Shown: positions 2,816 through 45,662 of the stretch, in pieces
Layout of the letters: the number at the start of each line of letters is the position of its first letter
How positions within the stretch are numbered: the first letter of the stretch is position 1
From: Anaerolineales bacterium
Lineage (GTDB): Bacteria; Chloroflexota; Anaerolineae; Anaerolineales; DRMV01
Direction: 5' to 3'
Length of the DNA: 45,662 nt
Assembly (NCBI GenBank): GCA_027053355.1
Contig: JALUDX010000084.1
Location: forward strand, 1 to 45,662
Notes under the pieces: model-generated
Database searches by the model: none
Told to the model about the DNA's origin: nothing
What the model saw: the letters and a program-made list of their open reading frames with translations, nothing else
Translations under genes and position numbers: made by a program

Positions 2816-3057
2816 GAGGAAATGTAACTGTTCAGCCTTGGCAAGAAGAAGAAACCACAGATTACGCAGATTACGCAGATTACGCAGAAAGACATCCACA
2901 GATTTCACAGATGAGCATAGATTGAGCGAAAAACACAAAAAACGCAACGCTTTCCTTCGTTTCTTGGCGACCTTGGCGACCTTGGCGACCTAAAAATCCG
3001 TGGCTATCCGTGTTATCCGTGGTCTATCTCCTTGTGGCTAAATCGTTACGAGGAAAT
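2816..3057. mobile_element. MITE-like element, family I copy a, with perfect 8-bp target duplication
   Basis: A 226-bp non-coding element (2824-3049) has terminal inverted repeats GTAACTGTTCAGCC (2824-2837) and GGCTAAATCGTTAC at the right end. It is flanked by identical 8-bp direct repeats GAGGAAAT (2816-2823 and 3050-3057). Inside are short tandem units: ATTACGCAG three times and CTTGGCGAC three times. There is no transposase. GTAA termini and 8-bp duplications fit the IS66 family, so this is probably a non-autonomous derivative. It fills most of the gap between the sensor kinase and its response regulator. The rest of the gap (2781-2815 and 3058-3120) shows only the Shine-Dalgarno site GGAGG before 3121. 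Confidence 0.85.
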
Positions 3058-6399: not shown

Positions 6400-6857
6400 G
6401 TAACCGTTCGGCCTTGGGGGCCCGGCCGCGGATGACGCGGATGGCAACGGATTCCCGCGGATTTTCGAGACGCCGCTCATCTGTGAGTGTTTTTCTGCGG
6501 AATCGTAATTACCTACCCTGCACCGAAAACGAGGCTGACAATCAAAGTTTCAGTAACTTTGCCATGCCATGAAGCAACATTACGCCTTGCTCGCCCTCAC
6601 CTTACCCCCGCTGCGCGCCCCCTCTCCTCTCCCATTGGGAGAGGAGAGGGGGCTGAGCCGCCACCCTTCGTCTTCGCTCAGGGCAGCGGCTCTGGGGGAG
6701 TGGTGAGGGCGAAAAGCCACTGCTTTGGCCGTGAGAAACACCCAGGGATGATTCACTCAGTCAACTCAGTCAACTTGCTCCTTGTTGCGTAGCAGGTAGG
6801 TAGTTACGCGGAATCTGCGTAATCTGTGGTTTCTCCTCGCCGAGGCGGAACAGTTAC
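6400..6857. repeat. Family I element interrupted by a family II element
   Basis: GTAACCGTTCGGCC (6400-6413) and GGCGGAACAGTTAC (6844-6857) are inverted family I ends. The right part keeps the typical words TGCGTAATCTGTGG. A family II element has landed inside at 6505-6807. Outer flanks do not form a clear 8-bp duplication. The rest of the gap to the mraZ promoter (6858-6957) shows nothing recognisable. Confidence 0.65.
6497..6815. mobile_element. MITE-like element, family II copy a, with perfect 8-bp target duplication
   Basis: The element spans 6505-6807. Its ends are inverted: GTAATTACCTACCCTGC at the left and GCAGGTAGGTAGTTAC at the right. It is flanked by identical direct repeats GCGGAATC (6497-6504 and 6808-6815); removing one copy restores a normal family I sequence. 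Inside is a near-perfect palindrome (arms CCCCCTCTCCTCTCCCA, one-base centre) and one CTTCGTCTTCGCTCAGGGC unit, bounded by TCGCCCTCACC and GGTGAGGGCGA. No transposase is encoded. Confidence 0.85.
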
Positions 6858-6957
6858 CTGAAAAGTTACGGTCAGGGGCAGACGCTTGTCGGGGCTGAAA
6901 CCGTTGGCCGACCAGCCAGATTAGACGCAATTGTCACGAAATTGTGTGGCTTTTTAC

Positions 6958-6986
6958 TTGCTTTTTCCTGGGTTTTCGTTTATACT
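6958..6986 (+). promoter_or_regulatory. Promoter of the dcw cluster (PmraZ)
   Basis: TTGCTT (6958-6963), a 17-bp spacer, then TATACT (6981-6986), 81 bp upstream of the mraZ start. The MraZ-type operator begins at the last base of the -10 element, so bound MraZ would cover the transcription start. Confidence 0.7.
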
Positions 6987-7020
6987 GTGGGTAATTGTGG
7001 GTAGAAGTGTCGCGAAGTGG
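6986..7020 (+). promoter_or_regulatory. MraZ operator: four direct repeats at exactly 10-bp spacing
   Basis: GTG(G/T) cores start at 6987, 6997, 7007 and 7017. The first two repeats are TGTGGGT (6986-6992, 6996-7002); the last two are AGTGT (7006-7010) and AGTGG (7016-7020). MraZ of other bacteria binds arrays of TGGG/GTGG elements with this same 10-bp phasing upstream of its own gene, so negative autoregulation is the likely role. Confidence 0.7.
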
Positions 7021-7066
7021 AACGCCGGCAACGGCGTTTCTGTGCTTAATAAGGAAAGGCGAACAG

Positions 7067-7522
7067 ATGTTCTTAGGGCGCTATCGCCACAATCTGGATC
7101 GCAAGGGGCGGCTGACCATCCCCTCGCGCTTTCGCGAGCCGTTGCAGGGCGGCGCTTATCTGGTGCAGGGGTTCGACCGCAACCTCATGGTGCTCACCCC
7201 GTCCGTGTTTGAGCGCATCTATCGCCGCGTCAACGCCCTGAGCATGACCGACCCCGTGGCCCGCCAACTCAAGCGCCTGATTTTCTCCGCGGCCAGCCCC
7301 GTCGAAGTAGATAGCGCCGGCCGCATCCTCATCCCGCCTTATCTGCGCGACGCCATCGGCCTGGAGGGCGCGGCCGAGGTGGTCGGCGTGGGCGACTACT
7401 TCGAAATTTGGCCTCCCGAGGCCTGGGAGGAGCAAATGGATATTTTGCAAGACGCCGAAGCCAACGCCCGCCGCTTTGCCGCGCTGGACATTTCGCCGGT
7501 AGGCGAGGCGCCTGATGCGTAA
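7067..7522 (+). CDS. mraZ: Transcriptional regulator MraZ
   Basis: A nucleoid-associated transcription factor that in characterised bacteria represses the dcw cluster. The 151-residue protein contains two SpoVT/AbrB-like repeats: LGRYRHNLDRKGRLTIPSRF at the N terminus and VDSAGRILIPPYLRDAIGL in the second half. The ATG at 7067 gives the conserved start MFLGRYRHNLD and follows a purine-rich AAGGAAAGG; longer in-frame starts near 6995 would overlap the operator. It heads the cluster, with the rsmH start only 3 bp after its stop codon. Confidence 0.96.
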   Translation: MFLGRYRHNLDRKGRLTIPSRFREPLQGGAYLVQGFDRNLMVLTPSVFERIYRRVNALSMTDPVARQLKRLIFSAASPVEVDSAGRILIPPYLRDAIGLEGAAEVVGVGDYFEIWPPEAWEEQMDILQDAEANARRFAALDISPVGEAPDA

Positions 7523-32122: not shown

Positions 32123-32291
32123 TCAGTGCCTGCCTCGCAGGGGAGTATGCAGAATATAACCGTTCAGCCTCAAAGCGATACTGCGGGTAACGCAGACAGA
32201 AAACCTCAGCAGACCCCGAGAAGGCATGATTGATTGACAAAACTCTGCCTTGGGGCTACTCTCTCTTATCCCCCGATGAGCCTCACTTGGC
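32123..32291. repeat. Start of the second repeat nest
   Basis: No gene is seen. ATAACCGTTCAGCC (32156-32169) matches the left end of family I. The following DNA contains fragments of the dispersed words. The nest continues to the LCP gene at 33375. Confidence 0.45.
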
Positions 32292-32359
32292 CTTCGACTT
32301 CGCTCAGGCTTCGACTTCGCTCAGGCTTCGACTTCGCTCAGGCTTCGACTTCGCTCAGG
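32292..32359 (+). repeat. Tandem repeat, four exact 17-bp units
   Basis: CTTCGACTTCGCTCAGG is repeated four times without change. Seventeen is not a multiple of three, so the reading frame shifts at each unit and coding is excluded. The unit shares CTTCG-x-CTTCGCTCAGG with the 22-bp array at 32769 and with the window end. Confidence 0.9.
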
Positions 32360-32409
32360 CCAGGCGCTCGGCTCATCTGCCTCCTTCTACTAAGGGAAGG
32401 AAGGGGGCG

Positions 32410-32614: not shown

Positions 32615-32990
32615 GTTTATTCGTAATTACCTGCGTGGTGGCAAAACGCCTCTGTGGCGTAACTGCCTGCCCTGCGCCAAAAACGAGGTTGACAAGCAAT
32701 ATTCCAATAACTCTGCCATGCCATGAAACAACATTACACCTTGCTCGCCCTCACCATTCCCCCCATGCCCTTCGTCTTCGCTCAGGGCAGCCTTCGTCTT
32801 CGCTCAGGGCAGCCTTCGTCTTCGCTCAGGGCAGCCTTCGTCTTCGCTCAGGGCAGCCTTCGTCTTCGCTCAGGGCGGAGGCTCAGCCCCCTCTCCTCTC
32901 CCATTGGGAGAGGAGAGGGGGCGCGCAGCGGGGGTAAGGTGAGGGCGAAAAGCCACTGCAGCGCTTCTGGGTAGGTAATTACGTTTATTC
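32615..32990. mobile_element. MITE-like element, family II copy b, with perfect 8-bp target duplication
   Basis: The element spans 32623-32982 (360 bp). Its ends are GTAATTACCTGC and GGGTAGGTAATTAC (inverted). Identical direct repeats GTTTATTC flank it (32615-32622 and 32983-32990). Joining the flanks rebuilds a family I right-end sequence (GGTCTATTTCCC ... CCTTGTGGCT). It shares its outer segments with copy a at 6505, but the palindromic core is reversed and the CTTCG units lie on the other side. Confidence 0.85.
32769..32878 (+). repeat. Tandem repeat, five 22-bp units
   Basis: CCTTCGTCTTCGCTCAGGGC plus AG is repeated five times; the last unit ends GG instead of AG. It sits inside family II copy b, while copy a holds a single unit. 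The difference suggests expansion by slippage or recombination after insertion. Confidence 0.9.
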
Positions 32991-33039: not shown

Positions 33040-33250
33040 AGATAAACGTAACTATTCAGCCACAAGGAGATAGCGAGATAGCCCACGGATAACACGGATA
33101 GCCACGGATGCGCACAGATTTTAAAGTGCCGCCAAGTGCCAAGAAACGTTTGTGTTTTTCGCTCAATTTGTAAAATCTGTGGATGTCTTTCTGCGTAATC
33201 TGCGTAATCTGTGGTTTCTTCTTGCCAAGGCTGAACAGTTACAGACAAAC
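33040..33250. mobile_element. MITE-like element, family I copy b (reverse orientation)
   Basis: The element spans 33048-33242 (195 bp). Ends are GTAACTATTCAGCC and GGCTGAACAGTTAC, perfect inverted repeats except for one base. Flanking direct repeats AGATAAAC (33040-33047) and AGACAAAC (33243-33250) agree at seven of eight bases. Compared with copies a and c it lies in the opposite orientation and has two GCGTAATCT units. The rest of the gap to 33375 shows only the ribosome binding site. Confidence 0.85.
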
Positions 33251-41829: not shown

Positions 41830-42049
41830 GGAAACGTAACTATTCAGCCTTGGCAAGAAGAAACCACAGATTACGCAGATTACGCAGAAAGAGATCCACA
41901 GATTTCACAGATTAGCACAGATTGGGCGAAAAATACTAAAAAGCCCACTTTCGCCCTCACTTCTTGGCGGTCTTGGCGTCATCTTGGCGACCTAAAAATC
42001 AGTGCTCTCCGTGGTCTATTCCCTTGTGGTTGAATAATTACAGGGAAAC
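41828..42049. mobile_element. MITE-like element, family I copy c
   Basis: The element spans 41836-42041 (206 bp), with ends GTAACTATTCAGCC and GGTTGAATAATTAC. Flanking direct repeats AAGGAAAC (41828-41835) and AGGGAAAC (42042-42049) match at seven of eight bases. It fills the whole gap between the convergent fpg and yggU stop codons. It is in the same orientation as copy a, with two ATTACGCAG units. Confidence 0.85.
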
Positions 42050-45259: not shown

Positions 45260-45662
45260 CAAAGATGAAAACCACGGATTGCACGGATTAGCGCAGAGGG
45301 TAACGCCAAGGACGCCGAGGGTAACGCAGAGACGCAGAGAGAGTAACGCAGAGGCGCAGAGGAAACGGAGGCGCAGAGAGCGCAAAGGGTTAACGCCAAG
45401 GTCGCCAAGGTCGCAAAGGACGCCAAGGGTAACGCAGAGACGCAGAGGAGGCAAAGAGCGCAAAGAGAAAATTTTTTCTGATTACCCGACACAAAATCAA
45501 TCGTGCCCTGGCCGTTGTCTCATTGGCCGGCAGAACTCATCTCGTCATGCCAAATCTTTACAAAAATCTTGCTTTTCACACCCTCTCCTCTCCCCCCAAG
45601 CCGCCCCCTTCGACTTCGCTCAGGGCAGCCTTCGTCTTTGCTCAGGGCGGCGGCTTTCCCCC
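45260..45662. repeat. Dispersed low-complexity repeats at the window end
   Basis: 45265-45470 is made of short near-tandem words ACGCAGAGACGCAGAG and ACGCCAAGGTCGCCAAGG. Translations in all frames are Leu/Arg/Cys-rich and shift frame between units, so no gene is called. After a plain stretch, 45577-45662 holds CCCTCTCCTCTCCCC and two CTTCG-x-CTTCGCTCAGGGC units, a third partial copy of the family II core, cut by the window edge. Confidence 0.7.

What the first reader, a model, noticed from the sequence alone, without database searches (positions are those of the whole stretch)
6497..6815. Family II MITE inserted into a family I MITE with a perfect 8-bp target duplication
GCGGAATC stands directly on both sides of an element with inverted ends GTAATTACCTACC / GGTAGGTAGTTAC. 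Deleting the element and one copy of GCGGAATC gives TTTCTGCGGAATCTGCGTAATC, the normal interior of family I seen at 33190-33220. This shows a real transposition event and its order (II after I). IS66-family elements are known for GTAA ends and 8-bp duplications, so an IS66-type transposase in the same genome is the likely driver (inference).
Basis: partly seen in the sequence, partly recalled or inferred. Interest (0 to 1): 0.75.

Follow-up and report, generated by a model that had tools for sequence, protein, structure and literature searches.

The report
IS66-type miniature transposon nested in another
A 303-base non-coding jumping element sits inside an older repeat with a clean 8-base target duplication; it belongs to a large family whose ends match one lineage of IS66-type transposases, but no such transposase gene was found in this genome, so it is a real but fairly ordinary transposition record.

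Summary
Window 6505-6807 (303 bp) has inverted ends (12 of 13 bases) and is flanked by GCGGAATC at 6497-6504 and 6808-6815. Pairing ends without using the flanks gave 52 pairs in the stretches fetched from this genome: 40 of 52 have a perfect 8-bp duplication, 48 of 52 at most one mismatch. The joined flanks match a family I repeat (88.9% over 72 bp), so family II did land in family I. This recurs in 19 of 62 joined sites, only modestly above non-ORF control positions (573 of 3000). The IS66 guess is right in kind: the exact ends GTAACTACCTACC bound an intact 1506-bp single-gene IS66 element (L206), and among 90 IS66 locus ids the 14-mer end occurs only in that lineage (4 distinct places). 'In the same genome' is not supported: no PF03050 match in this assembly; the whole TnpC finds only weak matches (best E 0.0012). 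Near-3' codons of such a gene with its end survive in one member of the same family (L221). Verdict: an IS66/ISBst12-type MITE family inserted into another, its transposase lost, transient or unassembled. New member of a known kind.

The parts
6497..6504 (.). Left copy of the 8-bp target duplication, GCGGAATC
   Evidence: Sequence; 40 of 52 blind-paired copies have a perfect 8-bp duplication
6505..6807 (+). Family II MITE, 303 bp; belongs to the class of about 270-303 bp (relatives at 91-97%)
6505..6517 (+). Left inverted end GTAATTACCTACC
   Evidence: same 13-mer 178 times in the assembly with up to 2 mismatches
6795..6807 (-). Right inverted end, GTAACTACCTACC read inward (12 of 13 equal to the left end); identical to the ends of the IS66 element of L206
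6617..6653 (.). 37-bp near-palindromic core (36 of 37 positions self-complementary)
   Evidence: whole element folds with z -7.31 as single-stranded DNA
6808..6815 (.). Right copy of the 8-bp target duplication, GCGGAATC
6400..6857 (.). Older, divergent family I MITE that hosts the insertion (6400-6504 and 6816-6857 after removing element and one duplicate); its outer ends are read by eye and have no duplication of their own
   Evidence: Joined flanks match family I of L237 at 88.9% over 72 bp across the junction; ends
32615..32990 (.). Second family II copy of the window, 32623-32982 (360 bp, with a 22-bp tandem array inside), with duplication GTTTATTC on both sides
2824..3049 (.). Family I copy, 226 bp, perfect duplication GAGGAAAT
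33048..33242 (.).
41836..42041 (.). Family I copy, 206 bp, duplication AAGGAAAC / AGGGAAAC (1 mismatch)

Best explanation
The element is a non-autonomous miniature transposon (MITE). A DDE transposase of the IS66 family with the single-gene (ISBst12-like) layout recognises the 13-14 bp ends GTAAYTACCTACCC and inserts the element at a staggered 8-bp cut, with a preference for A+T-rich sites of the form CA|GAnnAnnC; repair of the gaps gives the 8-bp duplication. Here the site was GATTCCGC (GCGGAATC on the + strand) inside an older family I MITE, itself an IS66-type element. Shown: ends, duplications, copy number, nesting, and identity of the ends with one IS66 lineage. Inferred: that this lineage's TnpC moved the MITE, and that its gene was since lost from this lineage, came and went, or is missing from the assembly.
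For: 40 of 52 blind-paired copies with a perfect 8-bp duplication. Both ends of the intact 1506-bp IS66 element in L206 are GTAACTACCTACC, with a 485-aa TnpC (PF03050 E 8.5e-41). Of 90 IS66 locus ids, only 8 ids (4 distinct places, TnpC 70-100% identical to L206 in their best pieces) carry GTAAYTACCTACCC. That 14-mer occurs in 10 of 61 relatives, reversed control 2 hits in all; outside the family it occurs in G037 (1, beside the gene), G060 (3, one beside the gene) and G022 (1, unexplained). G060 holds both a remnant of this IS66 and a 172-bp MITE with perfect duplication CTCTGATC. G008, of the window's own family, has 28 codons near the 3' end of such a gene beside the end GCAACTACCTACCC at a contig end.
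Against: No IS66 transposase found in this assembly or in the other MITE-bearing genomes of the family, except the short remnant in G008. The intact L206 element has no duplication (7 of 8 bases differ). MITE and IS share only the ends. 4 of 52 pairs lack a duplication. Other transposase families were not searched for genome-wide.
Confidence: 0.82

Rival explanations
1. A MITE moved by a transposase of another family that also makes 8-bp duplications (for example IS6, ISL3, ISAs1, IS256 or IS1595; family traits recalled, from no call) and is resident in this genome.
For: No IS66 gene was found in this assembly, yet 22 of 24 aligned copies of the 241-bp class lie within 7% of their consensus, which suggests fairly recent movement.
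Against: The 14-mer end is tied to one IS66 lineage (4 distinct places, none in the other IS66 loci); 10 ORFs from 5 loci with unpaired ends gave no transposase in Pfam; no pair of ends longer than 737 bp was accepted. Other families were not searched genome-wide.
Confidence: 0.12
2. Not a transposition of the whole element: a palindromic (REP-like) repeat next to pre-existing 9-bp tandem units (TGCGTAATC) that imitate a duplication.
For: The site lies in a TGCGTAATC tandem, and the palindromic core matches elsewhere in the order without the ends.
Against: 8-bp duplications of many different sequences flank the same ends, and sliding the flank by one base destroys the match (0 or 1 of 52). The unit flanked by duplications is the whole element.
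Confidence: 0.02
3. The IS66 driver is resident but was lost in assembly because it is a multi-copy repeat.
For: The assembly has 215 contigs; in G008 the contig ends inside such a gene, as collapsed repeats do.
Against: A collapsed IS should leave gene pieces at contig ends; the whole TnpC found only weak matches here, E 0.0012 and 0.157. G002, G003, G009 and G012 also show no PF03050 match.
Confidence: 0.2

Closest known systems
IS66 family, ISBst12 group (single tnpC), e.g. ISDge4 of Deinococcus geothermalis (PMC12898284, passages read)
   Same: GTAA-type ends and an 8-bp direct repeat; single gene in the related element of L206. ISDge4 ends are given as GTGACTACTCAGCA and GTAACTGCTCAGCA, close to the family I ends GTAACTRTTCAGCC.
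   Different: The window element has no gene, and its ends after GTAAYTAC differ (CTACC in place of a CAG-type sequence).
IS66 lineage of L206, L207, L100/L205 and L101/L208 (found here)
   Same: Ends GTAACTACCTACCC identical to the family II right end.
   Different: Full-length element of 1506 bp with a 485-aa TnpC in L206; no sequence shared with the MITE beyond the ends; not found in the window's genome.
Bacterial MITEs with a separate parent IS, e.g. MITEPsy1 / ISPsy2 of Pseudomonas syringae (PMC3189936, passages read)
   Same: Short, non-coding, inverted ends like those of a separate IS, target duplication; MITEPsy1 was shown to transpose.
   Different: MITEPsy1 is 100 nt, duplicates 4 nt and is listed as 'IS5?'; here 8 bp and IS66-type, and the parent IS was not found in the same genome.
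Nezha MITE of cyanobacteria (recalled; one mention read in PMC3049150)
   Same: A MITE ascribed to an IS by likeness of ends (ISNpu3-like).
   Different: Its details were not seen in any call, so no closer comparison is made.

Membership tests
MITE (non-autonomous transposon) | Short element with inverted ends | tested here: met
   303 bp, 12 of 13 end bases
MITE (non-autonomous transposon) | Target duplication of fixed length | tested here: met
   8 bp in 40 of 52 blind-paired copies
MITE (non-autonomous transposon) | Many copies in the genome | tested here: met
   62 pairs recovered from the stretches fetched; 88 exact 14-mer ends in the assembly
MITE (non-autonomous transposon) | No transposase gene inside | tested here: met
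   303 bp; the only ORF of 100 aa or more overlapping it that one search lists within it is a 101-aa frame (6487-6792 +) starting outside the element, taken as spurious; no Pfam search of it was made
MITE (non-autonomous transposon) | A related autonomous element with the same ends | tested here: met
   L206, both ends 13 of 13; in other genomes, not in this one
IS66 family | Ends beginning GTAA | tested here: met
   the trait itself is recalled and agrees with IS66 loci
IS66 family | 8-bp target duplication | tested here: met
   perfect duplications also at IS66 loci L098, L117, L118, L119, L120, L124, L136, L140, L179, L193 and L210, found by a search that partly selected for them
IS66 family | Carries a PF03050 transposase gene | tested here: not met
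   None in the element or in this assembly; hence filed as an IS66-type MITE, not as an IS66
MITE driven by an IS66 of the same genome | tnpC with matching ends in the same genome | tested here: not met
   the assembly is fragmentary
MITE driven by the L206 IS66 lineage | TnpC binds and moves these ends | not testable with these tools
   Needs a transposition assay

The most novel reading that the evidence does not exclude
Two IS66-type MITE families amplified to dozens of copies in small-genome lineages that keep no IS66 transposase: the MITEs were moved in bursts by briefly visiting IS66 elements that were then lost, leaving layered, datable insertions (II into I).
Probability: 0.3. Interest if true: 0.45.

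Novelty: new member of a known kind. Interest (0 to 1): 0.32.

Why it matters
It ties a high-copy MITE family of one bacterial family to a specific IS66 lineage by exact ends, gives a target-site preference for it, and shows an order of insertion between two MITE families. In the searches made I saw no description of an IS66-derived MITE, but most of the listed papers were seen as listings only and subscription papers are not held.

Tried and rejected
IS66 transposase in the same genome: searched with PF03050, with a TnpC fragment of L101 and with the full TnpC of L206. The last gave two weak stretches here: C64:5903-6025 (E 0.0012, 37%, one stop inside), which overlaps the start of the family II copy C64:6000-6156 by 26 bases, and C156 (E 0.157, a coiled-coil-type region). 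I treat both as chance but could not exclude that the first is a fossil. The IS66 of the congener G001 (L095) was considered: no GTAA-ended pair was found in its locus and G001 has no 14-mer ends.

A long gene-bearing element between family II ends in this genome: pairs up to 3500 bp were allowed; the longest accepted was 737 bp (C214), which has an extra internal stretch; its ORFs were not scanned. ORFs near unpaired ends: 10 proteins from 5 of the 9 loci listed were given to Pfam; no transposase.

Empty site at mraZ: 5 of 5 congeners align only from window 6944-6976 onward, so the predicted junction could not be tested; the empty site rests on family I paralogues.

Preference of family II for family I: 19 of 62 spanning sites against 573 of 3000 non-ORF control positions (19%) and 132 of 3000 positions of all kinds. 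The control comes from the same stretches and counts any hit rather than the best hit, so it is rough; I do not claim a hotspot. Whether insertions avoid genes was not tested. One search used the duplication in choosing some of its 62 pairs; the unbiased figure is. One search had the strands of some loci inverted and was redone. In one search two of 24 aligned copies of the 241-bp class differ from the consensus by 0.52, probably through wrong orientation; they were left in the mean identity of 0.875.

Full report
What is there. Window 6505-6807 is a 303-bp element with ends GTAATTACCTACC and (read inward from the right) GTAACTACCTACC, between two copies of GCGGAATC at 6497-6504 and 6808-6815. 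Its comparison site near 33190-33220 differs from the restored site by one base in the 8-mer.

Is it more than chance. The window lies in an assembly of 2.45 Mb in 215 contigs. The end 13-mer with up to two mismatches occurs 178 times there against 7 for the reversed control (which lists the first 100 places). I fetched stretches round listed matches. One search found 62 pairs of ends, 46 of 62 with a perfect 8-bp duplication and 56 of 62 with at most one mismatch, but used the duplication in choosing some pairs. Pairing adjacent ends blind to the flanks gave 52 pairs: 40 perfect, 48 with at most one mismatch, 4 without. Swapping flanks between elements gives at most one mismatch in 21 of 2652 comparisons, and sliding one flank by 1-3 bases gives 0 or 1 of 52. 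This is transposition with 8-bp duplication.

Anatomy. The 62 copies range from 157 to 737 bp, with peaks at 217, 240-242 and about 293-307 bp. The best relatives of the window copy are C211 (97%), C104 (96%), C163 (95%), C8 (92%) and C174 (91%). In the class of 240-242 bp, 22 of 24 copies lie within 7% of the consensus; two at 52% are probably misoriented. In 47 of 62 pairs position 5 is T at one end and C at the other. The core holds a 37-bp near-palindrome (36 of 37), and the element folds far better than 100 shuffles as single-stranded DNA (z -7.31).

Target. Over the 56 sites with at most one mismatch, the duplicated 8-mers are 42% G+C against 62% for the fetched stretches, with a bias of the form CA|GAnnAnnC; GATTACGC is the commonest (5 of 56). 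The window's site read on the other strand, GATTCCGC, fits it.

Nesting. The joined flanks of the window copy match a family I repeat at 88.9% over 72 bp across the junction. 35 of 62 joined sites hit family I and 19 of 62 across the junction; the best case, C7:11381-11621, matches family I at 98% over 110 bp. Controls: 573 of 3000 non-ORF positions and 132 of 3000 positions of all kinds span family I, so the excess over non-ORF DNA is modest. In C173 and C206 an outer family I copy with its own duplication (1 mismatch each) holds a paired family II copy (1 mismatch and perfect). C43 seems to be a third: outer family I with perfect TTTTCGTC, and inside it a family II end whose flank CACAGATT recurs 209 bases on beside a worn end. 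Of 12 family I pairs on family II stretches, none lies inside a family II pair. So 'II after I' holds for this copy and others.

Family I is IS66-type too. Its ends are GTAACTRTTCAGCC. Three window copies have duplications with 0, 1 and 1 mismatches. One search lists 27 pairs (12 with 0, 14 with 1, 1 with 2 mismatches), but that list was selected by the duplication and includes at least one weak pair (C84:21088). An IS66 element of Desulfopila (L210) has ends GTAACTATTCAGC and a perfect duplication AAACAAAT. The published ISDge4 of the ISBst12 group has GTGACTACTCAGCA / GTAACTGCTCAGCA and the direct repeat CCTCGATG (PMC12898284, passages).

Which transposase. PF03050 (IS66 DDE domain) has no match in this assembly. 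In 61 relatives it matches in 10, one of them the congener G001, whose element lacks these ends. In a class-wide sample 85 of 298 genomes match. Two order-level loci, L100 (G060) and L101 (G037), carry GTAACTACCTACCC just after the gene. A scan of named genomes with the L100 fragment found 10 loci, among them L206: an intact 1506-bp element, both ends GTAACTACCTACC, one 485-aa TnpC with PF03050 at E 8.5e-41. Its record is titled an uncultured archaeon MAG, which may be mis-binned (inference). L207 has the same right end. Of 90 IS66 locus ids (279 kb; 76 with a TnpC hit at 1e-5) only 8 ids, which are 4 distinct places, carry the 14-mer; their TnpC is 70-100% identical to L206 in the best pieces. 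The next best locus, L209 at 52%, has no such end within 2 mismatches. L205 and L208 are taken as the named records of L100 and L101, by identical protein and ends.

Distribution. The 14-mer GTAAYTACCTACCC occurs in 10 of 61 relatives: G000 88, G002 72, G009 9, G012 4, G003 3, G004 3, G008 1, and outside the family G060 3, G037 1, G022 1; the reversed control has 2 hits in all. G060 holds both the remnant of the IS66 gene and a 172-bp MITE with perfect duplication CTCTGATC. G008, of the window's own family, keeps 28 codons near the 3' end of such a gene (68% identical, E 3.1e-5) beside the end GCAACTACCTACCC at a contig end. The other end-bearing genomes of the family (G002, G003, G004, G009, G012) show no PF03050 match.

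Reading. Best supported: a MITE family moved by an IS66 transposase of the L206 lineage, with the gene now absent or unassembled here. Shown: ends, duplications, nesting, lineage-specific match of ends. Inferred: the actual use of that transposase and its loss. Against: no resident gene, L206 itself without a duplication, no shared sequence seen beyond the ends, and no genome-wide search for other transposase families.

Place in the genome. The element ends 259 bases before the ATG at 7067 of an MraZ gene (PF02381, E 7.9e-30), followed by an MraW gene (PF01795, E 3.7e-110). The block aligned with 5 of 5 congeners starts at 6944-6976, downstream of the insert, so the promoter was probably spared (inference).

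Literature. Listings for IS66 with MITE, 'miniature inverted' or nonautonomous, and for ISBst12 with MITE, and passages of PMC3189936, PMC9769881, PMC3281130, PMC12888890, PMC12898284 and PMC3049150 gave no description of an IS66-derived MITE. The library is open-access only and most listed papers were not opened, so this is weak evidence of absence. In kind the finding is ordinary: a new MITE family of a known sort with a well-supported parent lineage.

Noticed in passing
window 6617-6653 and 32886-32922: The same 37-bp GC-rich near-palindrome forms the core of both family II copies and matches (as query 95-157 of the element) in genomes of the order that lack the ends, so the core may be an independent REP-like repeat captured by the MITE.
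   Followed up: partly
window 32769-32890: A 22-bp tandem array (CCTTCGTCTTCGCTCAGGGCAG units) lies inside the second family II copy and explains its 360-bp length; related units recur at 32283-32367 and at the window's end 45607-45662.
   Followed up: no
L257 1501-1672: A 172-bp MITE with family II ends and a perfect duplication in the genome (G060) that also holds a remnant of the IS66 gene; its interior starts with a CCTCACCCTAACCCCTCT sequence directly after the end.
   Followed up: partly
L103 958-2069: A 1112-bp shortened IS66 element in G046 with identical 14-base ends GTAACTGCTCACGA but no duplication.
   Followed up: no
G022, one exact GTAAYTACCTACCC: One match in a genome with another IS66 type; probably the locus L265, where no good partner end was seen; unexplained.
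   Followed up: no
window 6944-7066: Stretch before mraZ conserved in 5 of 5 congeners, with GTGGG-type repeats that recall MraZ binding sites (recalled).
   Followed up: no
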